A stretch of DNA of 64,000 nt. Source: Acidithiobacillus thiooxidans ATCC 19377 (GTDB lineage Bacteria; Pseudomonadota; Gammaproteobacteria; Acidithiobacillales; Acidithiobacillaceae). The position numbers and the translations under genes are program-made. The DNA lies in contig NZ_CP045571.1 of assembly GCF_009662475.1 (NCBI RefSeq), forward strand, positions 1,734,501-1,798,500, given 5' to 3'. How positions within the stretch are numbered: the stretch's first letter is position 1; each line of letters starts with the position of its first letter. The notes under the pieces were generated by a model. That model worked only from the letters and a program-made list of their open reading frames with translations. It did not search any database and had not been told where the DNA came from. Of the stretch, positions 4,483 to 28,238 are shown piece by piece.

Positions 4483-4623
4483 AACCGCCACCTTTCAGCC
4501 TTTTGACGTTGGCTGCGCCATGGCTGCATCCACATCCAGCCATCACTAATCAGTACTTTCATCCGCTTTACCGCCCATAACGTCCCGTTTAAGCATAAGC
4601 CCTTTCCAGAAACACCAGACGCA

Positions 4624-4657
4624 AGTGTTTATCAAGGCCCGCATCTTGATAAACACT
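4624..4657 (+). terminator. Strong 13-base-pair hairpin
   Basis: AGTGTTTATCAAG and CTTGATAAACACT form a perfect 13-base stem with an eight-base loop, followed by the T-rich TTCTTTGGCTTTT. It lies between the IS and the gene at 4716, so it is either a terminator or a leader hairpin. The rest of 4483-4715 holds nothing recognisable. Confidence 0.55.
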
Positions 4658-4715
4658 TTCTTTGGCTTTTACCACGGAACGAGGCCGTTTCCCTCGAATT
4701 CAAAGGAGCCTAATC

Positions 4716-5201: not shown

Positions 5202-5601
5202 TCGCATCATCCGCAGTACGCATTTCATCGCCATGTTGATGGCCCTGCTTTTACTCGGTACGGGTTTTTATTTGTTAGCTAAAACGGGGGTTTTTGTCAT
5301 CGACAGTATTTGGGATGCCACCATACTGGACGCCATGACGGAAGGCACCATTGTCCGCGTTCTTGACACGATAATCGTTCTCGAAATGGTTTTTGTGGTG
5401 CTTAATCTGGACCACAAACAACACATTAACGTGGGCATGGCATTGGATGTCGCAGCGACCATTACCATTCGGGAGTTAGTGCTGGCTATTTATTCCAAGC
5501 ACCATGCTAATGCCATCCTAATCATTCTACTGGCCATTGCCGTTCTGGTGTCATTGCGCGTGTTGTACAGTTTCAGCAAAAGGAGGTTGTCTCATGAGTA
5601 A
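5185..5601 (+). CDS. PsiE-like four-pass membrane protein
   Basis: About 138 residues with four hydrophobic segments, at approximately residues 12-33, 56-73, 80-98 and 105-122. The pattern of a short membrane protein with VLEMVFVVLN, then an ALDVAATITIRELVL segment and a basic C-terminus ([10 protein letters not shown]) resembles the phosphate-starvation-inducible PsiE family. That is a resemblance of layout and a few residues, not proof. The ATG at 5185 (or 5188) lies inside the end of the previous gene. Its end overlaps the next start. Confidence 0.5.
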   Translation: MMRTSDRIIRSTHFIAMLMALLLLGTGFYLLAKTGVFVIDSIWDATILDAMTEGTIVRVLDTIIVLEMVFVVLNLDHKQHINVGMALDVAATITIRELVLAIYSKHHANAILIILLAIAVLVSLRVLYSFSKRRLSHE

Positions 5602-5809
5602 AATGCATCTTATCTGGTCTCCCGTAAATGATGCATGGATCAGTTTCTTTGGAGACAGTCCGTGTTCCATACGCGGGGAGAATTTTTTTAGTACCATTCA
5701 ACAAGCGCGTGCAGCCATCAAAGCGGCCGGCCTACGCCTTTATTCTGTAGCGCCTGGCACCTACTTGATAGCCAGTATGGAAGGAGGTTCAAATGCGCGT
5801 CAACCTTGA
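5594..5809 (+). CDS. Hypothetical protein, 71 residues
   Basis: AGGAGGTTGTCTC precedes the ATG at 5594, inside the end of the PsiE-like gene. The small soluble product has a beta-then-helix pattern ([16 protein letters not shown], then [14 protein letters not shown]). Its last 17 bases overlap nrdB, so it is co-translated with ribonucleotide reductase. Function unknown; position suggests at most a link to nrdB expression. Confidence 0.5.
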
Positions 5810-6812
5810 AGACAAACGTATCATCAATGGGCGTGCGGACGTCAATCAACTGGTCCCTTTCAAGTATCAGTGGGCTTGGGACAAGTATCTCGCCGCCTGC
5901 GCCAATCACTGGATGCCCCAGGAAATTCAGATGTCCCGTGATATCGCTCTCTGGAAAGATCCCAAGGGCCTCACGGACGATGAACGCCGTATTATCAAGC
6001 GTAATCTCGGATTTTTTGTGACGGCAGACAGCCTCGCCGCCAACAACATTGTCCTGGGCACCTATCGGCACATTACTGCGCCGGAATGCCGCCAGTTCAT
6101 GTTGCGGCAGGCTTTTGACGAAAGTATTCATACTTTCGCCTATCAATACATCGTGGAAAGTCTGGGCCTGGATGAAGGCGAGATTTTTAATATGTATCAC
6201 GAGGTCCCATCGGTACGGGATAAGGATACCTTTCTCATGCCATTCATTGATGTGCTTGCGGACCCCCATTTCAAAACGGGGACTTTCGAAAACGACCAGA
6301 CCATCTTGCGTTCCATCATCGTTTTTGCGGCCATCATGGAAGGTCTTTTTTTCTATGTAGGTTTCAGTCAAATTCTGGCAATGGGCCGGCAAAACAAAAT
6401 GATGGGTTCTGCAGAACAGTATCAATACATTCTGCGGGATGAATCCATGCATTGTAATTTTGGCATTGACCTGGCCAATCAGTTAAAGGCCGAAAATCCA
6501 CACCTATGGACGGAAGCCTTTCAGCAGGAAATCATTGGTCTGATTCGTCGCGGGGTGGAACTGGAATCGGCATATGCCGATGACACAATGCCGCGCGGCG
6601 TGCTTGGCCTGAATGCCCACGTATTCAAGGAATACGTCCGATTCATTGGCAATCGGCGCCTGGCACAACTCGGTTTGCCTCAGCAATATCCCGGTATACA
6701 AAACCCTTTCCCGTGGATGAGTGAAATGATGGACCTGAAAAAGGAAAAGAATTTCTTTGAAACCCGGGTAACGGAATACCAGACCGGCGGTTCGCTCAGT
6801 TGGGATGACTAA
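5793..6812 (+). CDS. nrdB: Ribonucleotide reductase class I, beta subunit
   Basis: This is the ferritin-like radical-generating subunit that works with NrdA to make deoxyribonucleotides. Metal ligands are placed by spacing against the E. coli enzyme: D79, E110, H113, E183, E217 and H220. Y117 is at the tyrosyl-radical position (ExxHxxxY, as in E115/H118/Y122). It therefore looks like a tyrosyl-radical rather than a Phe-substituted (Chlamydia-type) enzyme. At 339 residues it is a normal length. The ribosome site is GAAGGAGGTTCAA, and the start overlaps the upstream small gene. Its partner nrdA is 16 kb downstream, an unusual separation, with the PRTRC cassette between them. Presence on an accessory element suggests the element supports its own DNA synthesis. 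Confidence 0.95.
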
Positions 6813-6843
6813 TTCCCTCTCATTATTCACATCAACTTATCTC

Positions 6844-6870
6844 TCCCATGCGGGTGTATTCCCGTATGGG
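6844..6870 (+). terminator. Hairpin downstream of nrdB
   Basis: CCCATGCGGG and CCCGTATGGG form a ten-base stem with one G-T pair and the loop TGTATT. It is followed by AAGACAC rather than a T-run, so it may stabilise the nrdB transcript or act as a leader for the gene at 6937. Confidence 0.4.
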
Positions 6871-6936
6871 AAGACACATTCCAGTCGCATGGGTTCACGC
6901 TCTCGCATTGTCTGGACAATGCACCAGGAGGCTAAC

Positions 6937-7128
6937 ATGGACTGGAAATTCGCGGCTCGCCGTTTGGCTAAGGATTTAACCCATGTTGCTCACGGTTCTG
7001 CGGTTGCTATTTTTGCTGCTGGCTGGTTTTCCAACACCATGGAAGCCGCCGTCGTTGCAGCCGGCGCTTGGGTAGTCATCCGTGGTTGCGCCTTCGTCCT
7101 CGACGCTTGGGCCGGCCCTGCTCCTTAA
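6937..7128 (+). CDS. Small membrane protein, 63 residues
   Basis: CAGGAGGCTAAC precedes the ATG at 6937. After a basic amphipathic start (MDWKFAARRLAKDL) there are two alanine-rich hydrophobic stretches, about residues 20-47, and a short C-terminal segment. It is one of many tiny membrane proteins on this element. Function unknown. Confidence 0.5.
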   Translation: MDWKFAARRLAKDLTHVAHGSAVAIFAAGWFSNTMEAAVVAAGAWVVIRGCAFVLDAWAGPAP

Positions 7129-7194
7129 GAACGATGCGTGTATCTCATGTGGTATAATGATATGCGTATTATTAATTTATAGGGGTAGGAAATC

Positions 7195-7326
7195 ATGGAT
7201 GCATTCAATGCACTGCTCTATGCGGCCCTGGTTCTTTGTAGCGGATGCGTCGGTATGACCGCATTCATCATCTACATGGGAGAACGCCAGGAACGCCAGA
7301 GGAAAATACAACACGGTTCCAAGTGA
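7195..7326 (+). CDS. 43-residue single-pass membrane peptide
   Basis: GGGGTAGGAAATC precedes the ATG. The peptide has one hydrophobic span (about residues 4-27) and a strongly basic tail (ERQERQRKIQHGSK). TATAAT at 7153-7158 is a plausible -10 element, though no good -35 is visible at the right distance. The size and layout match neighbouring small membrane genes. Confidence 0.45.
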   Translation: MDAFNALLYAALVLCSGCVGMTAFIIYMGERQERQRKIQHGSK

Positions 7327-7371
7327 CATGGTTCTGTTCTTAATTAAACGGCGGCAAAAGCTGCCCTCATA

Positions 7372-7412
7372 AGCAAGCACACATCCCAAAAGGATTGTGT
7401 GCTTTTCTTTGT
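7372..7412 (+). terminator. Probable intrinsic terminator
   Basis: GCACACATCC and GGATTGTGTGC pair with one bulged base around a loop of As, followed by TTTTCTTTG. It ends the small-gene run that started after nrdB. The rest of the gap to 7566 contains only a short GCGGG/CCCGC hairpin near 7521. Confidence 0.6.
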
Positions 7413-7566
7413 TTATCAATAAAGAAAAGCACATTAACCTTTCTGGTACCCTGTACCCCGGCGCTCACGGTTATCGGGCTATTCAAACTGCAGAAATTTC
7501 TCTGCACTCTTACCCTTGCGGGATTAGGCCCGCCTGGGCCACCCGCTCCTTACAAGGAGCCTTGTC

Positions 7567-7947
7567 ATGTTGCACACGCAATCTTTCCAACGTACCACCC
7601 CGATTCATTTTGTCGAAATGGATACGGAGGTCCCTCAAGAAATCAGCATGGATGCTGGCTTCATTCACACCGTCATTTTTTCCAGTGAGGCTTTTGCGCT
7701 GATTCGCTGGCGTCCTGGGGAAGACTCCAAAAAACATATTTTCGAACCGAGCGAAGACCGCTTATGGAACGTGCTGTGGATGGCCCAATTAGCCATTCGC
7801 GCCAATCCTGATGCAGAAGAAACGATGTTCGCAGCGCGTCTGATGCCAAAAGTTGGCGGCGGTCAATACCCGGAAATCGCGCGTTTCAGCGCAAAATGCA
7901 CCACAACCATTGATGGTCGCCCGGCGGTCAAAATAGACCTGGCTTAA
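7567..7947 (+). CDS. Hypothetical protein, 126 residues
   Basis: CAAGGAGCCTTGTC precedes the ATG at 7567. The protein is soluble, with mixed strands and helices, and is not recognised. Its last 85 bases (7863-7947) are duplicated imperfectly at 8713-8797, after the coiled-coil gene. This suggests a past tandem duplication or an insertion that left a second 3' end. Confidence 0.55.
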   Translation: MLHTQSFQRTTPIHFVEMDTEVPQEISMDAGFIHTVIFSSEAFALIRWRPGEDSKKHIFEPSEDRLWNVLWMAQLAIRANPDAEETMFAARLMPKVGGGQYPEIARFSAKCTTTIDGRPAVKIDLA

Positions 7948-8056
7948 TTGATTGAACAAGCCTGCGTAATACTTCCACAATCACATTATGCAGGCATTCA
8001 AAGAACGTTCTGTAAGGCGTTGCGATCCTCAGAAACAAAGGAGTAATATCTTGTAT

Positions 8057-8551
8057 ATGAGCACATGGAAATCACCAGTAGCCTTGTACAAGGCTCTCGT
8101 TGAGGCGAAAGTCTCCACAGATACCGCGACTGAGGCCGCTCAGTCCGTGGTGGATGACATTCGAACAGTGATTAATAACCTGGCTACCAAGCAGGAATTA
8201 ACGCAAGAGATTTTGGCAGCCCGAAAAGATCTCAGGCACGAAATCCTGCTGACCAAACGTGAGCTTCAAAATGAAATTCACGCGACAAAGAACGAACTTC
8301 AAAGCGAAATTCGTGAGACGAAGAGCGAGATCCAAGCGACGAAAATCGAACTTCAAAGCGAAATTCACGCGACGAAGAGCGAGATCCAGACAACGAAGAT
8401 CGATCTTCGCGCTGAAATCAAAGTGCTGGAAACCAAAATGGATAGCAAGTTTAAAATCATGCAAGTTTACATGGTAATCATCGGCATATTGGCGGCCTCT
8501 TCCAGCCCGATTTTCGCCCCTCTGGTCAAAGTTATCGAACACCTGCTGTAA
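8057..8551 (+). CDS. Coiled-coil protein with C-terminal membrane anchor
   Basis: About 164 residues. The middle (about residues 40-130) is a long coiled coil built from near-identical units such as ELQSEIHATKS and EIQATKI, seen in the DNA as repeats of GAACTTCAAAGCGAAATTC. A hydrophobic segment near the C-terminus (about residues 137-157) should anchor it. The layout resembles CCDC90/DUF1640-like small bacterial proteins. A TTG at 8051, seven bases after AAAGGAG, is an equally good start. The repetitive coil may vary in length between strains by slippage. Function unknown. Confidence 0.6.
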   Translation: MSTWKSPVALYKALVEAKVSTDTATEAAQSVVDDIRTVINNLATKQELTQEILAARKDLRHEILLTKRELQNEIHATKNELQSEIRETKSEIQATKIELQSEIHATKSEIQTTKIDLRAEIKVLETKMDSKFKIMQVYMVIIGILAASSSPIFAPLVKVIEHLL

Positions 8552-8712
8552 TCCCCTCTCAGGATAAGCACTGTATCCAGTGCCATCCTGTACCTTCCCT
8601 AATATCGCGTCATAGTCCTCGCATCATCAACGCGCAGTCCCCCATTTCATCGAAAAATCTCCGATGGGAGGATGGGGATGTACGTCTTTTGTGTGGATAT
8701 GTCGCCTTCACC

Positions 8713-8797
8713 TCAATACCCGAGAATCGCGCGTTTCAGCGCGAAATGCACCACACCCCTTGATGACCGGCCGACGATCAAAATAGACCCGGCCTGA
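8713..8797 (+). pseudogene. Duplicated 3' end of the 7567-7947 gene
   Basis: These 85 bases align without gaps to 7863-7947, keeping the reading pattern from TCAATACCCG to the stop codon (TGA here, TAA there). No start or 5' part is present, so it is a dead fragment. It lies inside the otherwise gene-free stretch 8552-8872, where only a CCCATTTCATCG/CGATGGGAGGATGGGG-type hairpin region is also seen. Confidence 0.7.
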
Positions 8798-8872
8798 TAT
8801 TTTCAACTTCCAATCTCGGCATGCTGCGGCTGTTGTAACCAGTCGTGATTGGACCTGCAAAAAGGAGTTTTT

Positions 8873-9124
8873 ATGTATAGCACTGAAAAAGATCACGAAG
8901 TCGTTATTGTGATGGAAGGCGGTTTAATCCATGAGGTCATGATGAACGAGGCCGCAAAGGCTCGCGTCAGAATTACCATCGTGGATATGGACACAGAAGG
9001 AACAACCCTTGATGTCCATACCGATCTGTCCGGAAACGAAATCACCATCGAACAATACGGTGAAAAGAACTCTAGCGGTCCATGCGAATACATGGACCAT
9101 ATCCTCAGTCTGGTAAAGGAGTAA
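8873..9124 (+). CDS. Hypothetical protein, 83 residues
   Basis: AAAAGGAGTTTTT precedes the ATG at 8873. The acidic, beta-rich product (VVIVMEGGLIHEVM, VRITIVDMDTEG) ends three bases before the parB start, so it probably shares the parB transcript. It is a plausible cargo or accessory gene of the PRTRC operon, but it is not one of the named PRTRC families. Confidence 0.5.
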   Translation: MYSTEKDHEVVIVMEGGLIHEVMMNEAAKARVRITIVDMDTEGTTLDVHTDLSGNEITIEQYGEKNSSGPCEYMDHILSLVKE

Positions 9125-9127
9125 ATC

Positions 9128-10783
9128 ATGGAAGTAGTCGTCAGCAGCATCGTAGAAGGCGTCAACCCCCGTCGTTACTTTGACGAGGAGGAGATGCAGG
9201 AGCTGACCCGCAGCATTAAAGCGAACGGCATCTTGCAACCTATTGCTGTACGTCAAAATGCCGAGGGCAAATACACCATCATGGCGGGGCACCGTCGTTT
9301 TCGTGCCGCGCAAACGCTGAAATTAGATAAAGTCCCAGTCCACCTGGTGGACGGAGACGAAGATGAGATCGCTCTCATCGAAAACAGCGTCCGGGCCGAT
9401 ATGAGTCCTGCTGAGGAATGTGAGGCCGCCGCCAAAATCCTCCGCAAGATGAAAGGTGACATTGTGGAAGCGGCGATCCATCTGGGATGGACCGAAGACA
9501 AGCTACGCCGTCGGGTCGCCTTGTCTGCCTGCAGCCAGAAGGTCCGTGATGCGCTTGCAGAACGGAAGATCAAATTGGGCATTGCCGAGTTGCTGGCAAC
9601 CGTTCCGGAAACCGAAAATCAGGACAAAGCGCTGGAAAAGATTGTTGCCAATAATCTGAGCGTCGTCGAAGTCAAACACTTCCTGGCCAAGCTGACGCAG
9701 AAGTTGAGTTCTGCCATTTTCGACCGTGCGGAATGCGCACAATGCCGCTTTAACACGGCCGTGCAATCCTCCCTCTTTTCCGAACTGGTGGCCGATGACA
9801 GTTTTTGCACCAACGCCGATTGCTTCTCCAAAAAAACGGAGGAAGCGGCGAACATCAAGGCGGAAGCGTTGAAGGAAAACGTCCAAACCGTTCGCGTCGT
9901 CAGTCTGCAGGACACGCAGGAAAACTTTACCAAACTGTCCGAACAGGGTGGCCATGGTGTCGGTTGTGACCAGTTCCGGTCCTGCCACTCCTGTGCCAAA
10001 TATGGCGCGGTAGTCTGGCTGACCCCCGGACATGAAGGCGAAGTCGAACAGGATATTTGCTTTGACCTTGACTGTCACGCCCAAAAGGTGGCTGCAGCAC
10101 ATCCGGCTCCAGTGATCGCCCCAACTACCGGACCTGATTCTGTCGAGACAGGCGCATCGCCTGGACTGGATGATGACGGGCTGGAAAACGCGAGTTGCGG
10201 TGAGAACAATCAGGATAACACCGGTTCTTGCTGCGGCTCTTCGACCCCTGCGGAAACACAGTTTATCAGCAGCGCGATTATCGAATACCGCCGGAACCTC
10301 TGGAACATGGTGGCGAAAAAGATGATAGCGGCCGATCTGGAAAAAGGCCGTACCATTTTGCTGGCCCTTGTTATTAATGGACGTTCTTCGACGACCGATA
10401 AGTACAAAATCGAATCGGTACTGAAGAAATACGATGTGCAATCCAGTAGCTTTGAGGCCCTTTGTTCGGATATTGATAGCAAAGACATGGCCCTGCGCCT
10501 GTCTGCAGCCTCTGCGGCTACCGCCTTTGACAGTTTGCAGCATTCCGAAGTGCAAAGCATCCTCCACTACCTTCGCCCGAACCTGGGAGACTTCTGGAAG
10601 ATGGATGCGGATTACCTAAAGCTGCTCACCAAAGCCCAGATTCGCGCGGTCTGCGATGAGTTGGGCATCTCCGAAAAGCTGGAAAGCAAGGTCTTCACTG
10701 ATAAGAAAGAAGCCCTGGTGAAAGCCATCATGGAATCAGGTATCGATTTTGCCGGCCTGGTCCCCGCTCACTTGAATTATTGA
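9128..10783 (+). CDS. PRTRC-system ParB-family protein
   Basis: A 551-residue ParB/Spo0J-type DNA-binding protein, first of the PRTRC (ParB-related, ThiF-related) cassette. The N-terminal ParB domain shows VNPRRYFDEEEMQELTRSIKANGILQPI, then MAGHRRFRAAQ and IENSVRADMSPAEE, with a following helix-turn-helix (EAAIHLGWTEDKLRRRVAL). The long C-terminal half is cysteine-rich (ECAQCRFNT, CTNADC, CRSCHSC-like and CFDLDCH), which suggests zinc binding. ParB proteins bind centromere-like sites and many are CTP switches; whether this one partitions DNA or regulates is not known. The three tandem repeats just downstream at 10868-10916 are a candidate binding site. No ParA is visible in the window. Confidence 0.88.
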   Translation: MEVVVSSIVEGVNPRRYFDEEEMQELTRSIKANGILQPIAVRQNAEGKYTIMAGHRRFRAAQTLKLDKVPVHLVDGDEDEIALIENSVRADMSPAEECEAAAKILRKMKGDIVEAAIHLGWTEDKLRRRVALSACSQKVRDALAERKIKLGIAELLATVPETENQDKALEKIVANNLSVVEVKHFLAKLTQKLSSAIFDRAECAQCRFNTAVQSSLFSELVADDSFCTNADCFSKKTEEAANIKAEALKENVQTVRVVSLQDTQENFTKLSEQGGHGVGCDQFRSCHSCAKYGAVVWLTPGHEGEVEQDICFDLDCHAQKVAAAHPAPVIAPTTGPDSVETGASPGLDDDGLENASCGENNQDNTGSCCGSSTPAETQFISSAIIEYRRNLWNMVAKKMIAADLEKGRTILLALVINGRSSTTDKYKIESVLKKYDVQSSSFEALCSDIDSKDMALRLSAASAATAFDSLQHSEVQSILHYLRPNLGDFWKMDADYLKLLTKAQIRAVCDELGISEKLESKVFTDKKEALVKAIMESGIDFAGLVPAHLNY

Positions 10784-10790
10784 TGCATCA

Positions 10791-10823
10791 CCACCCTGCC
10801 GAGTAGGACTCGGCAAGGTGGTT
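10791..10823 (+). terminator. Hairpin at the end of parB
   Basis: CCACC..GCCGAGT pairs with ACTCGGC..GGTGG, with a two-base internal mismatch and loop AGG, followed by TTTATT. A second hairpin, GGCTCTC/GAGAGCC, lies at about 10836-10855. Together they may terminate or attenuate parB transcription before the downstream operon. Confidence 0.6.
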
Positions 10824-10867
10824 TATTCCTGGGGGCTCTCTATATGGAGAGCCGCCTTTCCTCTGCT

Positions 10868-10916
10868 GTGTCTGCACACGGCATGTGTTGCACACGGCAT
10901 GTGTCTGCACACGGCA
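10868..10916 (+). repeat. Three tandem 16-17 base iteron-like repeats
   Basis: Three head-to-tail copies: GTGTCTGCACACGGCAT (10868-10884), GTGTTGCACACGGCAT (10885-10900) and GTGTCTGCACACGGCA (10901-10916). Each holds the inverted pair GTGT/ACAC. They sit between parB and the gene for PRTRC protein E. Such clusters act elsewhere as replication iterons or ParB centromere sites, so this is a candidate parS or origin. The sequence shows only the repeat and its position. Confidence 0.7.
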
Positions 10917-11034
10917 AAGGAAAGGTTTACGCACTTTTAGTGCCGCACCGGACGTTTCCGGATCTATCGTTTGCCGGTCTGACCGCGCAAATTTCCTACC
11001 CGCCCAACCGGGCATTCATACGGAGTATAAAACC

Positions 11035-11424
11035 ATGTTCTTTGATGAACTTGCTGAACTATTAAAAGATTACGCGGTAACCACCATGGTCTTTTCCATG
11101 GATGGGGAGCGTATGCGCATCAATGTGTTGCCGAAAGCGACAGAAGGCAAAAGCGACCCGATACCTTTGTCATTGTGTGCGAGTCCCGCTGAACTGAATG
11201 TCGGTTTTATGGACGCCATGAAATCTTATCGTGAACGCATTGCATCACTGGCCGAACAGGTGGCTGAATTCGAAAAACAGGCCCAAGCAGCAGCTAAAGA
11301 AGCCGCTGAAAAAGCCAAAGCGAAGACGGCCACTCCCGCTAAAACCCCCGCCAAAAAGCCGGAACCTGCCGCTGCCCCGCAAAAGGCAAAACAACCGGCT
11401 GAAGACCTTGGCGATCTATTTTAA
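11035..11424 (+). CDS. PRTRC system protein E-like
   Basis: A 129-residue protein. The N-terminal half has strands (TTMVFSMDGERMRINVLPK) and the helical PAELNVGFMDAMKSYRERIASL. The C-terminal half is a low-complexity Lys/Ala/Pro-rich tail (about residues 80-120) ending AEDLGDLF. Position directly before protein C, size and tail fit the PRTRC E family; the sequence signature is weak. ATACGGAGTATAAAACC precedes the ATG. It begins the operon E-C-F-B-ThiF. Confidence 0.75.
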   Translation: MFFDELAELLKDYAVTTMVFSMDGERMRINVLPKATEGKSDPIPLSLCASPAELNVGFMDAMKSYRERIASLAEQVAEFEKQAQAAAKEAAEKAKAKTATPAKTPAKKPEPAAAPQKAKQPAEDLGDLF

Positions 11425-11435
11425 GGAGATATGGC

Positions 11436-11639
11436 ATGATCGAAGTTGAATCCATTACCCGCGTTTTCAAATACAACGGGATTTCCTTGCCGGATCCCAA
11501 TCCGACGCTACCCATCGAAACTGTCCGCTCTGTGTACGCCCATCAGTATCCTGAACTCGGATCTGCCGATGTGCAGTCCGAAATCAAGGGCAAAAAGCAG
11601 ATCGTGACCTTCCAGAAAGTGCTTGGGCACAAGGGATAA
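11436..11639 (+). CDS. PRTRC system protein C, ubiquitin-like
   Basis: A 67-residue protein with the family pattern: RVFKYNG, then LPDPNPTLPIETVRSVYAHQYPEL, then VTFQKVLGHKG. This family is described as a prokaryotic ubiquitin-like fold. The C-terminus ends in a single glycine (GHKG), not a GG pair. It could be the modifier conjugated by the neighbouring E1-like ThiF and E2-like protein B, but conjugation by PRTRC systems is not established as far as I know. AAGGAGATATGGC precedes the ATG. Confidence 0.85.
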   Translation: MIEVESITRVFKYNGISLPDPNPTLPIETVRSVYAHQYPELGSADVQSEIKGKKQIVTFQKVLGHKG

Positions 11640-11671
11640 TCCCATGGCCTCGCTCCTGGAAAGACTCAACG

Positions 11672-11690
11672 GAGCCCCCGAAAAGGGGGC
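11672..11690 (+). terminator. GC-rich hairpin between genes C and F
   Basis: AGCCCCC and GGGGGCT pair perfectly around GAAAA. No T-run follows, so partial attenuation or RNA processing within the operon is more likely than full termination. Confidence 0.4.
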
Positions 11691-11726
11691 TACCCCGTAC
11701 CCCAAACTGACAAAGGAGATGCAGCA

Positions 11727-12770
11727 ATGCGCCTATTCTCTGGAAAGAATGGTAACGCGCCCCGACTGGCGTGCCCAACATCCCCTACGCAAGCCGAAAC
11801 ACGTTCTGTCACACCTGCCGCCCATGTTCTGAGCTTGCCCAGCCTGTCTCCAGAGATTCCGTGGATTTACTCGGAATCGTGCAATGCCAAAATCCTGAAT
11901 TTAGGCAAATCACTCATGGAGATAGGGGTAAAGCTGGAGGACTCGGAAAGCCAATCTATTCAAGAGATTGTGCATACAGCAACCGAAAAGTTCATGGATG
12001 AGATTTTTGGTCATCACCTCGATGATTTACACATAGAGGAAAATGAGGGTGATGACACGTTAATCTTGACGTTTTCATTACCGCTTGAAGATGCACCGAC
12101 ATTCGTTTGCCATGAAAAGCTACAGGCCATGCATCAAAAAGCGAATGGTTTGGTGGAATACGCCCTAAACACGCTCTATCGATCCCCTATCTCCGTGATG
12201 ACACCCGGAGATCTGATGGGTGTCATAGAGATGGTTGAGTGGCTTGGTAGCGATGACGAAACCGAATACCTCCTGGAAATGGAAGCGGACGGCATCCCTG
12301 AAGAGGACGTGAACGTACTTCGCAAAACCGATGTGCTCCAGGTCATCCCGCAATGGACTCTGGACGCCTGCTATGCAAAAACGGACCTCAGAATCCAGGT
12401 CAAAGAAAAATCCCTGAATCGGCAAGAAAGGGAACTCCTGAAACTGCTGGACCAGCTTTCACAAATGACGCCCGTCAAAATACCATCGAAACCCAATCGG
12501 TACGAAAAGTACGGATTGACGCAAGGTTATAGCCAATTTGCCGGCATCATGTTGATGGATAACGGAGAGCCAGGCGGCCTCTGTTACCAAATGCTGGACC
12601 ACCTGTATCAACGCGGCATGGAGAGTGGAGAAGCCGAAGACAACGCCGTTTTCATGCTGGATATCACACCACAAGAAAATGTACGTGACTGGGTAGAATT
12701 GTTGCAGGACTGCAGCACCATTTTAACGCTCATTCACCGTATATTGCCCTTTCTCGGAGAAAAACTATGA
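11727..12770 (+). CDS. PRTRC system protein F-like
   Basis: A 347-residue, mostly helical acidic protein. CAAAGGAGATGCAGCA precedes the ATG. The C-terminal part contains NRYEKYGLTQGYSQFAGIML and a helical end (WVELLQDCSTILTLIHRIL). Assignment rests mainly on the fixed gene order C-F-B-ThiF and on length. The N-terminal 50 residues are Ser/Pro-rich and may be disordered. No enzymatic motif is visible. Its stop overlaps the start of gene B by four bases (TATGA). Confidence 0.75.
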   Translation: MRLFSGKNGNAPRLACPTSPTQAETRSVTPAAHVLSLPSLSPEIPWIYSESCNAKILNLGKSLMEIGVKLEDSESQSIQEIVHTATEKFMDEIFGHHLDDLHIEENEGDDTLILTFSLPLEDAPTFVCHEKLQAMHQKANGLVEYALNTLYRSPISVMTPGDLMGVIEMVEWLGSDDETEYLLEMEADGIPEEDVNVLRKTDVLQVIPQWTLDACYAKTDLRIQVKEKSLNRQERELLKLLDQLSQMTPVKIPSKPNRYEKYGLTQGYSQFAGIMLMDNGEPGGLCYQMLDHLYQRGMESGEAEDNAVFMLDITPQENVRDWVELLQDCSTILTLIHRILPFLGEKL

Positions 12771-13495
12771 ACACCAGTTTTCATATCGAAAGCCACAGCA
12801 TGCAGTTGCGTTCTGCCATCCTCCTGTATGGAAATGGGGGTCATGTAGACTATGCCACACAGCATCCTGTTGGTCAGAATTCAGACAACGCGCCCGTCAT
12901 TCTCCCGGGTTCTGCGTTAACGCAAGAAGAGCTTGCCAGTGCGTATCAAGCCTTACTGGGGAAGACGCCCTTACAGATGTTGGATAATCGCACCTTAGCG
13001 TTCAATGTATCCACTTTGGTGTTCTGGTCAGAACCCCAGGTCCGGACCACCTATTTTGATTGTCCGGAACCGATGGGCAAAAGATCCGGCCCCGTGCCGC
13101 ATCCCGGTCTCGTATTTGTTTGGCAAGATCATGGATTGTCCGTGTTTGCTGTCAAAGGGCGTAAAAGACCGTCCTTGAACACGCCCCTGTTTAAGGCCCC
13201 TTACATGAATGTGTATGCTGGGGGTTCAATTTGCATGGGCAATGTGAAGGTTCCCAAACCGGAACCCGGCAATATATCGGCTTGTGAAGCGGCCTTTTTT
13301 CAATCCCGTTTTACCCATGCGAATCACGCCACGCAGGTCCAGTATCCCGGCGGCATTTATACTTTGTGGGTGGATCTTCTGGCGTCCAAAGCGAATCGCT
13401 TTCCAGAACAAGCCCTGGCACCCATGGAACCGGTTCATGGCAAGCAGCAATTCACCATGGCCGACCTTCTATCCAAAGCGGGGGATTTGTCATGA
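12767..13495 (+). CDS. PRTRC system protein B, E2-like (UBC-fold family)
   Basis: A 242-residue protein of a family classed as prokaryotic E2-like. The hallmark region is NVYAGGSICMGNVKVPKPEPG, with C156 in the place expected for an E2 active cysteine. Upstream strands include LVFVWQDHGLSVFAVKG. It overlaps F on one side and ThiF on the other (CATGA), so the three are translationally coupled. Inferred role: accept the protein C modifier from the ThiF-like protein. No E3 or JAB-type deconjugase (PRTRC protein A) was found in the window. Confidence 0.82.
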   Translation: MNTSFHIESHSMQLRSAILLYGNGGHVDYATQHPVGQNSDNAPVILPGSALTQEELASAYQALLGKTPLQMLDNRTLAFNVSTLVFWSEPQVRTTYFDCPEPMGKRSGPVPHPGLVFVWQDHGLSVFAVKGRKRPSLNTPLFKAPYMNVYAGGSICMGNVKVPKPEPGNISACEAAFFQSRFTHANHATQVQYPGGIYTLWVDLLASKANRFPEQALAPMEPVHGKQQFTMADLLSKAGDLS

Positions 13496-14313
13496 CGCAT
13501 CGTTATCTATTTCAAAAGCCTAACGATGGCAGTTTCTATGCGACCCCGACCATCGTAGTCATAGGGGCCGGTGGTACCGGTTCGCAATTATTAACGGGAC
13601 TCTCCAGAATGGTTGTCGCACTTCAAAGCCTCAACATGGCAGCCCCCGAGGTGATTGTGTGTGACCCGGATACGGTGAGTAGAGCCAACGTGGGACGGCA
13701 ACTGTTTTCACCGTCAGACATTGGGCAATCAAAAGCGCATACGCTGGTAAACCGAATCAATCAGTATTTCGGTTTAAACTGGCAGTCTTATCATGGCAAA
13801 TTCACACCTAAAATAGCCAAGTCCAGAGTCATATACATTTCCTGTGTGGACAGTCGTAGTGCGCGCCAGGAAATCTACGAGGCCATCAAGGAAAGCGCTT
13901 CGTACTGGCTAGACTTAGGCAATAACAACCACTCAGGGCAGGCGATATTGGGAAATTCCGATTTTCATAAACGGAACCCCTCTGCAAAAAGAAAGTATTG
14001 CCTGCTACCGACCGTTGCCGATCTCTTCCCGGAAATCATGGATGCTTCCATAGCGGAAGACGAGGATACCCCGTCCTGCAGCCTGGCAGAGGCCTTGGTC
14101 AAGCAGGATTTAATGGTGAATCAGACGGTAGCTACCCATGCCCTGGAATTGTTGTGGCAGCTGTTAAGGCATGGTGAGATCCATTATCACGGTTTTTTCT
14201 TTGATAACCGTAACTTCTCCCTCCAATCCTTGCCCATTGACCGCGACCATTGGAAACGGCTGATGAAACAGGCCAAAAAATATCGAAAACCAGTCAGCGC
14301 GCAAGCGGCCTGA
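13492..14313 (+). CDS. PRTRC system ThiF-family (E1-like) protein
   Basis: A 273-residue adenylating-enzyme fold. The nucleotide loop is IVVIGAGGTGSQLLTG (about residues 21-36). It is followed by CDPDTVSRANVGRQLFSPSDIGQSKA, matching the E1/ThiF pattern of D, N, R, Q residues, and by SCVDSRSARQEIYEAI. By family knowledge it would activate a ubiquitin-like C-terminus using ATP. The true start is the ATG at 13492, overlapping gene B; the frame is open well upstream. It ends the operon, followed by a strong terminator. Confidence 0.88.
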   Translation: MTHRYLFQKPNDGSFYATPTIVVIGAGGTGSQLLTGLSRMVVALQSLNMAAPEVIVCDPDTVSRANVGRQLFSPSDIGQSKAHTLVNRINQYFGLNWQSYHGKFTPKIAKSRVIYISCVDSRSARQEIYEAIKESASYWLDLGNNNHSGQAILGNSDFHKRNPSAKRKYCLLPTVADLFPEIMDASIAEDEDTPSCSLAEALVKQDLMVNQTVATHALELLWQLLRHGEIHYHGFFFDNRNFSLQSLPIDRDHWKRLMKQAKKYRKPVSAQAA

Positions 14314-14332
14314 CCCAACCCATTACCCACTC

Positions 14333-14352
14333 CCCCGCTTGCGGGGTTTTTT
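14333..14352 (+). terminator. Intrinsic terminator of the PRTRC operon
   Basis: CCCCGC and GCGGGG pair around TT and are followed by six Ts. It ends the E-C-F-B-ThiF operon. Confidence 0.85.
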
Positions 14353-14533
14353 CCATGGCATTCCACGAGTGCCATCGAACAAACCAGCAAGTTTTTTGGC
14401 AAAAGCCACGGCACGCACCGCTATGCGTTTTCCACTATCTGTTCGGGTATCTATGAACCTGACAATCCAAAAACTGCGCGCATTGCTGCGCACATAGCAC
14501 TCCCCTTGTTCAACATTTATCGAGGACTGAACC

Positions 14534-14746
14534 ATGGAAAATTGGACATTGCATTACAAGAACACGGTGTATGGTGTTAACAACGGCAAGGTCACGGAAC
14601 ACATCATCGCCTCCGGACTGAGCATGCATGATGCCCTGCAACTCCAAAGCCAGGGACTCCTGTTTCCCTCAGTGAATGCAGCGCGGGCTTATATCGAAAA
14701 AACCTGTGCTTCACGGGAACAGAATAACCCCACAGACCGTTCTTAA
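14534..14746 (+). CDS. Hypothetical protein, 70 residues
   Basis: ATCGAGGACTGAACC precedes the ATG, a weak but usable ribosome site. The product is small and soluble, with WTLHYKNTVYGVNNGKV strands followed by helices (MHDALQLQSQGL, NAARAYIEKTC). No family recognised. Confidence 0.45.
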   Translation: MENWTLHYKNTVYGVNNGKVTEHIIASGLSMHDALQLQSQGLLFPSVNAARAYIEKTCASREQNNPTDRS

Positions 14747-14783
14747 ACCCAGGAAGAATCACCATGAAAAAAGGAGATCAAAT

Positions 14784-15077
14784 ATGAATCATATCCTTAT
14801 ATGGTCTGTCATCTTGCTTTTCAGTATGCAGGCCATTATCGCTGTCGGGATTATTCGGGTTGTTTCTGAAGACAGCCTGATAAAGAAAATTGCTTTAGGC
14901 GTTGGTATCGTTGATATATTCGTCTTTCTTACATCAATGATAGAGGTCATATACGCTGCATTTGGCGTACCTGTTGGCCCAATGCGGTTACTCATCAATC
15001 TGGGAGCGACGGCTACCACTATGGTTATTTTTTGGAGCCTACGTTCATGGCAGGAGAAAAACCATGAACGCCCATGA
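14784..15077 (+). CDS. Three-pass membrane protein, 97 residues
   Basis: AAAAAAGGAGATCAAAT precedes the ATG at 14784. Three hydrophobic segments lie at about residues 3-24, 32-53 and 62-82, with charged ends. Its end overlaps the next small gene by 14 bases. Function unknown. Confidence 0.5.
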   Translation: MNHILIWSVILLFSMQAIIAVGIIRVVSEDSLIKKIALGVGIVDIFVFLTSMIEVIYAAFGVPVGPMRLLINLGATATTMVIFWSLRSWQEKNHERP

Positions 15078-15192
15078 AGCTAACGACCTCTTTATGTGGG
15101 CGATGCTCATCCTGTTTTGTACGGGATGGGTATTCGCCCTGCTTATCGGCCTCTCCGCCGATCATTTCCTCAAGAAAGGAGACCGCAAATGA
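15064..15192 (+). CDS. 42-residue membrane peptide
   Basis: The start lies inside the previous gene and the stop overlaps the next start (AAATGA). One hydrophobic span (about residues 10-31) is followed by a basic tail (DHFLKKGDRK). Coupling on both sides supports it as real. Confidence 0.45.
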   Translation: MNAHEANDLFMWAMLILFCTGWVFALLIGLSADHFLKKGDRK

Positions 15193-16178
15193 GTACCACC
15201 TACACCTGCAAACGGCAGGCCAACGTGTTCCTGAACAAAGACGGTGAACGCATATTCATCATGAATGAGGTGACCTATGACAGTAATGTGTTCCCGCATA
15301 CGCCGAGAATACACGTCTTCCATATTGGCGACCTCAAAAGCACGATGGAGAAGATCTTTTCCTATGCTGCTGATGTGGAAGGGGGCATGTTGGCCAGCCC
15401 CAACGGTCGATTAACCCCGGAGGGATACATCAAGTCGTGGATTGAATGCATCAAGCGGCCTTACTTCTATGATCCTGAGCAGCCGTTGGATTTTGAGTTT
15501 TACCGGCTGTATCCAGGCATCAAAAGGGGGTTTATTGAGGCTGTAGAAGAACGTGGAACACCGAAAACGGTCCTGAATCATTATGATTTAGCGATAAAAT
15601 TTCACGCTTATTCAAGCATCCCAAAAACTTTTTCCAACGACGGATACCCGTATGTTGGAGAATCCACAATTACCGGATACATGCCTAACAAATGCCATGA
15701 AACGCCTCCGCCACATCCAACCCACTTTATCCGGCTGGATGATAAATATGAGCCCTATTACATCCAGATGGATGAAAACGGGGTGGGTATCTCTGCACCT
15801 GTATGGCCTTACCGAGCTATCGGGCACTACATCGAAAGCCTATATGAGCAGGAGTTTTCACACCCTGGTTCGTATAAAGCGTGTATAACGTCATTCCGGG
15901 ATTTCCTGAAAACCCTGCCCGAAACCAACCCAGGCAACGTTCTGTGCGTCGTAAAGCCCATTGAATCGTCCGACGATGAATACATGGCCAAACGAAAGCG
16001 GGAACTGATCGATGAATATGGTAACGGTTCGTTTGATTTGGAATCTGTACCATCGGACAAGCGCTATTACATCTTCAATGGGCCTGTGCGATTCACGCTC
16101 AAGGACACCTCAGACTGGATGGCACATGGTTACGGCAGCAGTCAGCCCGTTCAAGTGCAAGAATCACTGTTCTTATGA
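15189..16178 (+). CDS. Hypothetical protein, 329 residues
   Basis: AAGAAAGGAGACCGCAA precedes the ATG at 15189. This medium-size soluble protein is rich in tyrosine and proline and shows no nucleotide-binding or metal motif that I recognise. The ordered composition and lack of repeats suggest a folded enzyme or structural protein. Its last recognisable segment is YGSSQPVQVQESLFL. It is the largest wholly unknown gene of this part of the element. Confidence 0.6.
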   Translation: MSTTYTCKRQANVFLNKDGERIFIMNEVTYDSNVFPHTPRIHVFHIGDLKSTMEKIFSYAADVEGGMLASPNGRLTPEGYIKSWIECIKRPYFYDPEQPLDFEFYRLYPGIKRGFIEAVEERGTPKTVLNHYDLAIKFHAYSSIPKTFSNDGYPYVGESTITGYMPNKCHETPPPHPTHFIRLDDKYEPYYIQMDENGVGISAPVWPYRAIGHYIESLYEQEFSHPGSYKACITSFRDFLKTLPETNPGNVLCVVKPIESSDDEYMAKRKRELIDEYGNGSFDLESVPSDKRYYIFNGPVRFTLKDTSDWMAHGYGSSQPVQVQESLFL

Positions 16179-16221
16179 CATCAGGCGATTGCTAACCAAA
16201 GTCATTTGATACTGAAAAAAC

Positions 16222-16245
16222 ACCCGCAAGTATCCACTTGCGGGT
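16222..16245 (+). terminator. Hairpin, possible terminator
   Basis: ACCCGCAAGT and ACTTGCGGGT pair perfectly around ATCC and are followed by CTTATCC. It could end the 15189 transcript or serve as a leader of the gene at 16278. Confidence 0.5.
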
Positions 16246-16277
16246 CTTATCCATGCGTAACAACAAAGGAGATTATT

Positions 16278-16535
16278 ATGCAAGCCATTGGCGTAGAAAC
16301 GTCTACCACCGCTGACATTGACCCTGGCTTTATTACCCGCGTCATTTCCGTCTTGAATAAAGACGTCTACGGCGACCAAGAGTTACAAATGTCACATACG
16401 CTGCTTCAATTGCAGCAAAAAGCCGCAGAAGAAGGCGCCGAATACATCACCGGCATCCGCTTTATGGTGGTGCCAAGCCATGACCATCCCGGCGTCATGC
16501 TGATGGCGGCTTACGGAACCATCAGCCTACATTGA
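16278..16535 (+). CDS. Hypothetical protein, 85 residues
   Basis: AAAGGAGATTATT precedes the ATG. The product has helices in the middle (QMSHTLLQLQQKAAEEGAEY) and a hydrophobic strand-like end (GVMLMAAYGTISL). The pattern of a helix followed by GAEYITGIRF recalls small oligomeric dodecin or YbjQ-type folds, but this is only an impression. Function unknown. Confidence 0.5.
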   Translation: MQAIGVETSTTADIDPGFITRVISVLNKDVYGDQELQMSHTLLQLQQKAAEEGAEYITGIRFMVVPSHDHPGVMLMAAYGTISLH

Positions 16536-16792
16536 TGCTTTGTATCAATTGTACGATTTCTTCAATACCCATGACTAATTGATTTGACCTGCCTGCCCCT
16601 GTTTTCTACAGGGGCAATACGCATAGTATTCATACCAAAATCCTGCATTTTGTTATGAAGATTATTCCTGTGACCAGCACATTCAACTGGATACCACCTT
16701 ATCGGTTTTTCTATATCCGATAGATTTTTCAACACACTGCCACCGCAGTTTCTTTTAGCGCCCACGCGCGCATCATGCACAAGGAGTCAAAT

Positions 16793-17743
16793 ATGGAACG
16801 CGAAGCGTTTTCAATGCCTGAATCCATCATCAGCATGGAAGATGACACCATTCGTGTCGGGCAACTGGTGTACTCAGGGAATTTGTTTTCCCAAGAATAC
16901 GGCATCATCACGGCTATCCACGGTGAACAGACGCATCCGCAAGGTTTTGGATTGGTTCTGAACACCACCAAAATGGCCGAGCTTGATATCGTCTTTTCAT
17001 CAGGGGAACGGTCTTATCACGTCCCTGAAAATGTCATCAGACACCTGCCATGGAAGCTATTTGGCAATACCTTTTCCGCTTCTGAAATTGAAAATGCCAT
17101 CCATTTTGCTGAGGCAAGAGACCAACGCAAGGCGATAGAAAAGGAGGCTGCCAAGGCCAAATTTATCGCGGAAATGGAGCGGTTACGGAAGGAATACCCG
17201 CAATTACTGGTTGCTGCCGATGAAACCGACCACAGAAAACGCGCGGCCAAAAACATGCGCATTCTGCTCAAGCAATTCAAGGGCTGCAAGTTTTCCGTGA
17301 GGACAGACGACAACTCAATCCGAGTCTCATGGATGGATGGCCCGACTGTCCCGCAAGTAAATGAAATCATCAATGCTTTCAAAGCGGGTAATTTTGACGG
17401 CATGACGGATAGCTACGAGTACCAAGAATCTCCGTGGAATGAGCTATTTGGGTCTGCCATGTATGTTTTTTCCGATCGCGGCTACTCAGAAGATCTCCTG
17501 AAGCGATCAGTGGTTTATTTGTGGAAGAGATTGCCCGGCAATCTCCATGGAATTCCACAACCTGAAAATCCAGCAGAGGTATTCACCATGACACCCAGGC
17601 AGATACCAGAACTCAACATGACCTTCGGCGAAGCCGTTAATTCTCTGGCCTACCAATTCGACTGTTTAAATAGCCGATATGTCCGGGCCTACGGCTGTTC
17701 TGGCGGATTTTTGATCCCTGAATCAGAAGCAGAAGCCGCCTAA
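16793..17743 (+). CDS. Hypothetical protein, 316 residues
   Basis: CAAGGAGTCAAAT precedes the ATG at 16793. The N-terminal part looks beta-rich (IRVGQLVYSGNLFSQEYGIITAI), like a small barrel. A charged helix follows (residues 100-145), then a domain containing SVRTDDNSIRVSWMDGPTVPQVNEIINAF. The latter recalls LPD29-type and related accessory domains found on plasmids, with low certainty. Upstream, 16536-16792 holds no gene. Confidence 0.5.
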   Translation: MEREAFSMPESIISMEDDTIRVGQLVYSGNLFSQEYGIITAIHGEQTHPQGFGLVLNTTKMAELDIVFSSGERSYHVPENVIRHLPWKLFGNTFSASEIENAIHFAEARDQRKAIEKEAAKAKFIAEMERLRKEYPQLLVAADETDHRKRAAKNMRILLKQFKGCKFSVRTDDNSIRVSWMDGPTVPQVNEIINAFKAGNFDGMTDSYEYQESPWNELFGSAMYVFSDRGYSEDLLKRSVVYLWKRLPGNLHGIPQPENPAEVFTMTPRQIPELNMTFGEAVNSLAYQFDCLNSRYVRAYGCSGGFLIPESEAEAA

Positions 17744-17776
17744 ACACCATCCATTGCTTATTATTAGGAGCTATTT

Positions 17777-18157
17777 ATGTACCCAGAAAATTTCGGTCAA
17801 CTGGCCTACGATTACAGCAACAAAAAGAATTTCTTGAACAAATCAGCCGCCTTGCTGCGTACTGTCGCCAAGGGGTTCCCTGACCTGGATTGCCGGGTCA
17901 AAAAAAATGAAGGCGGCATCGCTGTAGGGGGTGACGTCTACCTATACGTCAATGGCGTCGAAAAAGGCGTCCTGGTCACTATTACGCATTCACCTATCAG
18001 TAGCCAGCGTGCGGACGGCGTTATTTGCTACCTGCAACCCCGCCTTCCAGACAAAACCGGTAAATTCACGGTATTACCCGTGAATGCACCCAACCGCTAT
18101 GTAGCGCTGGATGCCCAGCGTATCCAGGCAGAAGTCCAGCGCATGCTCGCTGCCTAA
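17777..18157 (+). CDS. Hypothetical protein, 126 residues
   Basis: TATTAGGAGCTATTT precedes the ATG. A helical N-terminus (about 1-35) leads into a beta-rich domain (GGIAVGGDVYLYVNGVEKGVLVTITHS). No membrane segment or catalytic motif is visible. Function unknown. Confidence 0.5.
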   Translation: MYPENFGQLAYDYSNKKNFLNKSAALLRTVAKGFPDLDCRVKKNEGGIAVGGDVYLYVNGVEKGVLVTITHSPISSQRADGVICYLQPRLPDKTGKFTVLPVNAPNRYVALDAQRIQAEVQRMLAA

Positions 18158-18175
18158 TCGTTCTCTCTACCATTT

Positions 18176-18262
18176 GCCCGGGATCAATTTGATCCCGGCC
18201 CCCCTCTTTTCAGGTAATGCCTGAGCCAAACATCCAGCCACCCACTGCAGGTTGTTTGGCTC
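18176..18262 (+). promoter_or_regulatory. Two consecutive hairpins before the methyltransferase gene
   Basis: CCGGGATCAA and TTGATCCCGG form a near-perfect palindrome at about 18177-18197, and GAGCCAAACA pairs with TGTTTGGCTC (18223-18262) around a 20-base loop. The first may terminate the upstream gene; the second may belong to the leader of the next. Confidence 0.45.
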
Positions 18263-18361
18263 AAGCATGACGTTTCAAACCTCCCAAAGTTTTTGTGTTT
18301 TGCACCGTGACCCGGCACGCCAACCGGGATTCTGACTCGCATTCCCATGGGAGAATCCAAT

Positions 18362-20097: not shown

Positions 20098-20113
20098 CGA
20101 AAGGAGTCCATTT

Positions 20114-23225: not shown

Positions 23226-28238
<5,013 letters not shown>

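What the first reader, a model, noticed from the sequence alone, without database searches (positions are those of the whole stretch)
9128..14352. ParB plus a ubiquitin-like conjugation set (PRTRC cassette) on an element that carries its own nucleotide reductase
In order: ParB, protein E, ubiquitin-like C ending in glycine, F, E2-like B with a candidate active cysteine (C156), and an E1/ThiF-like protein with GAGGTGS. Genes F, B and ThiF overlap by four bases each. The families are known; what the cassette does is not, as far as I know. The JAB deconjugase (protein A) and protein D are absent from the window, so this may be a reduced form. A ubiquitin-like modification acting on a segregation or replication protein is a possible job.
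Basis: partly seen in the sequence, partly recalled or inferred. Interest (0 to 1): 0.85.

Follow-up and report, generated by a model that had tools for sequence, protein, structure and literature searches.

The report
Ubiquitin-like tagging cassette without its protease
A probably mobile stretch of bacterial DNA carries a small ubiquitin-like tagging kit whose tag protein is made ready to use, and comparison with about 150 related gene sets suggests that the kit's missing protease is the one that trims the tag elsewhere.

Summary
In detail: ParB, E, C (ubiquitin-like), F, B (E2-like) and ThiF (E1-like) lie in that order at 9128-14313, with 4-bp F/B and B/ThiF overlaps. It is a PRTRC cassette, corresponding to operon type 6d predicted in 2006 (PMC1779556). 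E1 and E2 cysteines, adenylation residues and C's terminal glycine are intact; models of B and C align best with E2s and with ubiquitin-type folds, at modest Z. Protein A (JAB) was not found anywhere in the genome; a D-like actin lies 63 kb left of the window beside conjugation genes.

New here: among 155 loci with complete C, B and ThiF, C ends exactly at glycine in all 61 where A was not found, while 67 of 94 with A carry 1-100 residues beyond it. I wrote the prediction down after ten loci; it held in the other 145. A tree-aware test supports it (p about 5e-7; controls ParB .066, F .35), though independent switches are few. So A most likely matures C, and this is a recurrent A-less variant with ready-made C rather than a broken cassette. 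"Modifies ParB" is unproven: ParB is linked in 61 of 133 loci. PRTRC plus nrdB on an ICE is published (PMC3826726). Targets remain unknown.

The parts
9128..10783 (+). PRTRC ParB-family protein (551 aa) with a four-cysteine motif after the HTH
   Evidence: TIGR03734 456 bits, PF02195, PF17762; each of the four Cys is conserved in 63 of 74 aligned relatives
11035..11424 (+). PRTRC protein E (about 129 aa from the likely ATG; the ORF opens at 10885)
   Evidence: TIGR03741 73.5 bits; found in 127 of 133 loci with 4 kb or more upstream of C
11436..11639 (+). Protein C, ubiquitin-like modifier, 67 aa, ends ...GHKG with nothing after the glycine
   Evidence: TIGR03738, PF14454; AF2 mean pLDDT 86, aligned with ubiquitin; G64 and G67 invariant in 70 sequences
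11727..12770 (+). Protein F, role unknown; start codon uncertain
   Evidence: TIGR03742 30 bits, below cut-off; PF14456 alpha-hel2 19 bits, below cut-off
12767..13495 (+). Protein B, E2-like conjugating enzyme, Cys156, Asn148, His184
   Evidence: TIGR03737, PF14460; residue counts; AF2 mean pLDDT 90, first 34 rows of the second-look alignment are E2s
13492..14313 (+). ThiF-family E1-like adenylating enzyme, GAGGTGS, Cys196
   Evidence: TIGR03736, PF00899; best sequence matches among solved structures are NEDD8 and SUMO E1 subunits; residue counts
13492..13495 (+). B/ThiF 4-bp overlap, the place where protein A (JAB, about 640 bp) sits in relatives
   Evidence: Gene order ParB-E-C-F-B-A-ThiF in 6 of the first 10 plasmid relatives; A not found in this genome
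5793..6812 (+). Context: nrdB, second copy beside another nrdB elsewhere in the genome
   Evidence: PF00268 294 bits; matches at 85.5% and 89% identity on the two other PRTRC contigs of the genus
23226..28238 (+). Context: nrdA interrupted by two intein regions
   Evidence: PF02867, PF00317, PF03477, Hint, intein-splicing and LAGLIDADG matches

Best explanation
The locus is an A-less PRTRC cassette: a mobile-element ubiquitin-like conjugation set. ThiF adenylates the C-terminal glycine of C (Gly67) and takes it onto Cys196; C passes to Cys156 of B and from there to an amine of a target. Shown: the genes, the intact catalytic residues, no A found in the genome, and fold similarity at modest Z. 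Shown by comparison: in the 155 loci counted, a C with residues beyond the glycine always comes with A, and where A was not found C always ends at the glycine. Inferred: A is the JAMM protease that trims C at that glycine; here C is born mature, so A could be lost. The element then has no dedicated protease to take C off again, so tagging may be one-way, or host proteases may remove it. Targets are unknown. Most likely they belong to the element's own DNA replication and maintenance, because the cassette occurs on plasmids, conjugative elements and phage contigs, often with SSB, DnaN, DnaB or ParB genes nearby.
For: Profiles. ThiF: the four glycines of the adenylation motif, D58, N66 and R69 each in 169 of 172 rows (3 gaps), Cys196 in 172 of 172; B: Cys156 in 164 of 165 (one gap), Asn148 in 162, His184 in 158; A: the two JAMM His in 101 of 101, Glu and Asp in 100, Ser in 99. 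C: two glycines of GxKG invariant in 70. Tail rule: A not found, 0 of 61 with a tail; A found, 67 of 94; prediction written after ten loci with a complete C; in the 145 others 0 of 57 and 63 of 88. Dependent-trait model LR 34.9, p 5e-7; controls ParB p .066, F p .35; 0 of 1,367 retained simulations (of 5,000) left all A-less tips without a tail. Without A the ThiF match begins within 70 bp of B's stop in 55 of 61 loci; with A the distance is 585-1,233 bp. Best sequence matches of ThiF among solved structures are UBA3, SAE2, UBA5, UBA1 and Cap2; no ThiF or MoeB among the 23 at E 0.1 or less. Second-look structure alignment: for B the first 34 entries are E2s; C residues 7-66 align on 1-76 of 1ubq, Z 4.5.
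Against: No adduct has been seen and no target is known. Fold Z-scores (5.2 for B, 5.1 for C, the latter to protein G) lie below the tool's own caution level, and Foldseek alone gave no match at E 0.001 or less for B or C. Of 94 A-bearing loci, 27 have no tail, so A must do something else there or be kept by history. The tree has only 8 changes of A and 13 of the tail; the independent-pairs test has 4 supported pairs and cannot reach 0.05. Several fitted rates lie at the bounds, and the root is a midpoint. Absence of A was judged within the fetched stretch; whole genomes or records were checked for 5 A-less cases only (G000, G176 and three plasmids). C ends KG, not GG. PAPS-reductase-like genes near some cassettes leave room for sulfur chemistry.
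Confidence: 0.72

Rival explanations
1. It is mainly a partition system: ParB and the actin-like D segregate the element, and C, B and ThiF are accessory or regulatory without protein conjugation. This is how published annotations file it.
For: PMC3826726 treats ParB/ThiF as a partition system of A. caldus ICEs (passages); PMC7466150 marks PRTRC as an active partition system (passages); PMC4465626 lists PRTRC proteins among partitioning proteins (passages). ParB lies first in the window cassette, and a D-like actin is in the conjugation-gene region to the left.
Against: ParB is linked in 61 of 133 loci that all have B, C and ThiF, while E is found in 127 of them. Partition does not explain near-invariant E1, E2 and JAMM catalytic residues or the link between A and the C tail.
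Confidence: 0.13
2. C is a sulfur carrier: ThiF adenylates it, it becomes a thiocarboxylate, and B or neighbours use the sulfur for a nucleotide, cofactor or tRNA.
For: ThiF-family E1; ubiquitin-type C; PAPS-reductase-like genes annotated within the fetched flanks of 3 plasmid cassettes and a similar-looking ORF in L007 (read by eye only).
Against: E2-type Cys with Asn and His near-invariant in B; best solved matches of the E1 are NEDD8, SUMO and ubiquitin-type E1s, not ThiF/MoeB, at E 0.1 or less; no rhodanese domain matched in ThiF; C ends GxKG, not GG.
Confidence: 0.09
3. The window copy is a decaying remnant: A was lost by deletion and the rest no longer works.
For: A is not found in the whole genome; F scores below its cut-off.
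Against: All six frames open, catalytic residues kept, 4-bp overlaps kept, and C ends exactly at glycine as in the 60 other A-less loci counted.
Confidence: 0.06

Closest known systems
PRTRC (ParB-related, ThiF-related cassette), NCBIfam TIGR03734-TIGR03742
   Same: ParB, E, C, B and ThiF pass their curated cut-offs; same order as plasmid relatives apart from A
   Different: No protein A; F below cut-off; D-like actin below cut-off and about 73 kb from the cassette
Operon type 6d of Iyer et al. 2006 (PMC1779556; section 14 and table passages read)
   Same: Small beta-grasp protein with C-terminal glycine, E2-like protein with a conserved His after the Cys, E1-like protein without rhodanese, helical protein
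   Different: That paper says that where JAB is not fused to the E1 a JAB gene is always immediately adjacent; in this locus and 60 others of 155 none was found
PRTRC on ICEAcaSM.3 of Acidithiobacillus caldus (PMC3826726, passages read)
   Same: PRTRC and nrdB on an integrative conjugative element
   Different: The passages seen report nrdB only; this region also has an nrdA with two intein regions
Bil, Bub and CBASS Cap2/Cap3 bacterial ubiquitin-like systems
   Same: E1, E2, ubiquitin-like protein and JAB logic (Bub and Cap recalled); BilC is reported to trim BilA to expose its glycine (PMC11354881, passages)
   Different: Separate E1 and E2 genes and PRTRC families; PADLOC matches ThiF only to the E1 part of E1-E2 fusions, at most 33 bits, and does not match C, E, F or B

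Membership tests
PRTRC system | PRTRC ParB, E, C, B and ThiF above curated cut-offs, in one run | tested here: met
   TIGR03734, TIGR03741, TIGR03738, TIGR03737, TIGR03736
PRTRC system | Protein F (TIGR03742) | tested here: inconclusive
   30.3 bits against cut-off 58.4, E 2e-7, right position
PRTRC system | Protein A, JAB (TIGR03735); usual, but not found in 61 of 155 loci, so not treated as defining | tested here: not met
   none in G000; matches in 6 of the 11 genomes or records searched
PRTRC system | Protein D (TIGR03739) | tested here: inconclusive
   158 bits against cut-off 214.8, 63 kb left of the window; actin-like by Pfam
Operon type 6d (Iyer 2006) | Small beta-grasp protein with C-terminal Gly | tested here: met
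   PF14454, two glycines of GxKG invariant, ubiquitin-type alignments at Z 4.4-4.9 (modest)
Operon type 6d (Iyer 2006) | E2-like protein, conserved Cys, conserved His downstream of it | tested here: met
   PF14460; C156 164 of 165, H184 158 of 165
Operon type 6d (Iyer 2006) | JAB gene adjacent to the E1 gene | tested here: not met
   B and ThiF overlap by 4 bp
Ubiquitin-like conjugation cascade (works like) | E1 adenylation residues and catalytic Cys | tested here: met
   169-172 of 172
Ubiquitin-like conjugation cascade (works like) | UBC fold in B | tested here: inconclusive
   first 34 entries are E2s, but Z at most 5.2; no Foldseek match at E 0.001
Ubiquitin-like conjugation cascade (works like) | Covalent adduct on a target | not testable with these tools
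   needs mass spectrometry
Known defence E1-E2 systems (PADLOC) | E1-E2 fusion | tested here: not met
   only the E1 part of fusion models, up to 33 bits; B unmatched and encoded separately

The most novel reading that the evidence does not exclude
PRTRC exists in two natural modes: a reversible mode with A, which trims C and could remove it, and a one-way mode without A, in which C is encoded mature and conjugates have no dedicated deconjugase. Mobile elements have switched between them several times, and the window element uses the one-way mode to mark its own replication or maintenance proteins irreversibly.
Probability: 0.3. Interest if true: 0.78.

Novelty: new variant of a known kind. 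Interest (0 to 1): 0.62.

Why it matters
In the passages I saw, PRTRC appears as a plasmid or ICE partition cassette, as a predicted operon or as rows of a transcript table; none tests its function. The A/C-tail rule turns the prediction into something testable: it names the protease, its substrate and the exact bond, and it says which cassettes can be rebuilt from the fewest parts. An A-less cassette such as this one should need no processing step, so E1, E2 and C from this window form a minimal set for a reconstitution assay. If conjugates are found, ubiquitin-like modification would be shown to serve mobile elements across plasmids, conjugative elements and phages.

Tried and rejected
Window ORF 34541-35197 (second ParB-like) and 38239-38904 (next to tRNA-Lys): the first is a ParB_N match just under its cut-off, the second has no Pfam match, so I do not call it an integrase. 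Element ends by repeats of the tRNA-Lys 3' end: none in 1,620,001-1,798,500; ends stay undefined. Conserved C-terminal motif in protein E as a docking peptide: only 65 of 147 fit the pattern tried; dropped. Sequence relatives of B or C among solved structures: none credible. Foldseek for B and C: no match at E 0.001 or less, and its listed top 50 rows for B hold no E2. RNA families at 4500-18500: none. Another JAB as stand-in for A: one match at the cut-off at C1:400427, which looks like RadC to me by eye (family recalled, not scanned). The search for 'PRTRC' also returned Rhizobium papers; in the one I opened (PMC6436695) the six places shown match only the plasmid name pRtrC..., so it is not evidence. 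In a B. thetaiotaomicron transcript table (PMC10434189, passages) PRTRC E, B and ThiF rows carry second-column values of 0.35-0.44, which I take for p-values; I draw nothing from them.

Rows dropped before counts: L010 and L011 (short duplicates of L119 and L121); loci lacking a complete C, B or ThiF; L052, whose C frame has an internal stop followed by an in-frame GTKG end (A-less, so it would not have countered the rule). L111 and L114 were scored as tailed by an alignment slip and corrected after reading that both end at Gly. Some loci are near-copies: 57 distinct C sequences among the 61 and 90 among the 94; the tree used 152 distinct ThiF rows.
Full report
Setting. The window is C1:1734501-1798500 of a one-contig, 3.416-Mb genome. 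No call names the organism; I think of Acidithiobacillus from gene content and from the A. caldus paper, which is recall and inference. PRTRC B is found in 3 of 31 genomes of the order (own included, all in one genus), in 5 of 398 genomes drawn from the phylum (own included) and, by tblastn with the window's B, in 305 of 72,556 plasmid records.

Observation. E probably starts at 11035. F/B and B/ThiF overlap by 4 bp.

A and D. Protein A gives no match in the whole genome; the same profile matched in 6 of 11 genomes or records searched, among them both other PRTRC genomes of the genus. The genome's one match to the general Prok-JAB model is at the cut-off and looks like RadC (family recalled). 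A D-like protein (158 bits, cut-off 215; actin-like by Pfam) lies at C1:1670043-1671059, 63 kb left of the window, next to a TraI_2 protein and a TraG/TraD-type coupling protein, with VirB4- and TrbI-type genes further right. The cassette therefore probably sits on a conjugative element, but I could not define its ends. D apart from the rest is also described on Azotobacter pAcX50f (PMC4465626, passage).

Enzymes. Over the relatives collected, the four glycines of the ThiF adenylation motif, D58, N66 and R69 are each kept in 169 of 172 rows (3 gaps) and Cys196 in 172 of 172. In B, Cys156 is kept in 164 of 165 (one gap), Asn148 in 162 and His184 in 158. In A, the two JAMM histidines are kept in 101 of 101, Glu and Asp in 100 and Ser in 99. 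C has two invariant glycines in its GxKG end over 70 rows. The best sequence matches of ThiF among solved structures are NEDD8 E1 (UBA3), SUMO E1, UBA5, UBA1 and Cap2, with no ThiF or MoeB among the 23 at E 0.1 or less.

Folds. B modelled with 83 sequences has mean pLDDT 90.3; C with 70 sequences 86.3. Foldseek alone finds nothing at E 0.001 or less for either. In the second-look alignment of Foldseek's top 1,000 chains, the first 34 entries for B are E2 enzymes (UBE2S Z 5.2, rmsd 3.9, 100 residues, model 73-217). For C the best row is protein G (Z 5.1), and about 38 of the 50 rows shown name ubiquitin or a ubiquitin-like protein (FAT10 Z 4.9; 1ubq Z 4.5, rmsd 3.2, 60 residues, model 7-66 on 1-76). 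These Z values are modest and alone would not settle the fold; with the curated profile matches they agree with E2 and beta-grasp.

The A/C-tail rule. In 6 of the first 10 plasmid relatives the order is ParB-E-C-F-B-A-ThiF; three others (L016, L017, L019) have no A annotated, and one (L014) has only B-A-ThiF of the seven annotated in the stretch. Reading their C proteins suggested that residues beyond the glycine occur only with A; I wrote the prediction down. 155 loci with complete C, B and ThiF were counted (dropped and corrected rows are under Tried and rejected). A not found: 61, tail in 0. A found: 94, tail in 67; 17 tails are 1-5 residues and 50 are 47-100. Leaving out the ten loci that had suggested the rule, the counts are 0 of 57 and 63 of 88. 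The 74 loci scored with profiles frozen on the earlier set give 0 of 23 and 31 of 51. A JAMM-like motif search within 5 kb of ThiF found nothing in the 61. Genus-mates of the window genome, G009 and G005, have A and a tailed C.

Is it only shared ancestry? On a ThiF tree of 152 rows A changes at least 8 times and the tail 13 times. A model in which the two traits depend on each other fits better than independence (LR 34.9, 4 df, p 5e-7). Two controls on the same tree do not reach that: ParB against tail, p .066; F against tail, p .35. Of 5,000 simulations in which the tail evolved independently, 1,367 reached 45-90 tailed tips, and none of these left all A-less tips without a tail. Weak points: fitted rates at bounds, midpoint root, absence of A judged mostly within fetched stretches, and an independent-pairs test with only 4 supported pairs (no opposing case, but too few to reach 0.05).

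Meaning. The simplest reading is that A cuts C after the glycine, as BilC is reported to do for BilA (PMC11354881, passages), and that A can be lost once C is encoded without a tail. In 55 of 61 A-less loci the ThiF match begins within 70 bp of B's stop, whereas with A the distance is 585-1,233 bp. Twenty-seven A-bearing loci have a tail-less C, so A may also remove C from targets there; A-less elements would then lack that step.

What it may act on. Among 133 loci with at least 4 kb upstream of C, E is found in 127, F in 84, A in 84 and ParB in 61. ParB is therefore common but not part of the core. In 145 loci of 11 kb or more the recurring neighbours outside the core include tyrosine integrase (25 loci), DnaB helicase (24), phage CII-type regulator (20), SSB (16), DUF932 (14) and DnaN (13) (clusters, one representative each identified; other large clusters had no Pfam match or were not scanned). 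Of four viral-contig loci sampled with PHROGs, one carries portal and terminase genes and one a portal gene, so some PRTRC sets are phage-borne. The neighbourhood points to DNA replication and upkeep of mobile elements, but no target is shown.

Nucleotide reductase. The nrdB beside the cassette is 90% identical to the nrdB elsewhere in the genome; its nrdA is 55% (N part) and 62.5% (C part) identical to the other copy and has two intein regions. Both other PRTRC contigs found in the genus carry nrdA and nrdB; among the remaining loci only one weak nrdA-like match appeared. ICEAcaSM.3 with PRTRC and nrdB is published (PMC3826726, passages).

Literature. Iyer et al. 2006 predicted this operon type as 6d and state that, where not fused to the E1, a JAB gene is always immediately adjacent (section 14). 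In the held open-access library, searches listed no title on an experimental study of PRTRC, and the passages opened do not mention the A/C-tail rule. Subscription papers are not held and most listed papers were not opened, so this is not proof of absence.

Verdict. A PRTRC cassette with intact frames and catalytic residues, of a recurrent A-less variant. The family is known; the rule linking A to the C tail is, as far as these searches show, new, and it makes the protease step testable.

Noticed in passing
window 23226-28238: The nrdA near the cassette is interrupted by two intein regions (Hint, LAGLIDADG and homing-endonuclease matches); another nrdA lies elsewhere in the genome.
   Followed up: partly
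window 9128-10783, residues about 203-232 of ParB: A four-cysteine motif (CxxC...CxxxxC) after the HTH, each Cys conserved in 63 of 74 PRTRC ParB relatives, could bind zinc; role unknown.
   Followed up: partly
L132, L153 (viral contigs): PRTRC core genes lie on contigs with phage portal (both) and terminase (L153) genes, so the conjugation set is also phage-borne.
   Followed up: partly
L029, L031, L044, L104, L121 and others: Fifty A-bearing loci have C tails of 47-100 residues, long enough to be a second released protein rather than a simple cap; no function was tested.
   Followed up: no
L083, L099 and similar Bacteroidota loci: The set is E-C-B-ThiF without A or detected ParB and F; between C and B L099 has a protein of 408 aa with no Pfam match, member of a 22-locus cluster.
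   Followed up: no
window 18347-22816: A DUF6094 methyltransferase and an SNF2-like helicase follow the cassette; the helicase is 45% identical to one on the PRTRC contig of G009.
   Followed up: partly
L007 3190-4254: An ORF that looks IscB-like by eye (recalled, not scanned) lies left of the window.
   Followed up: no
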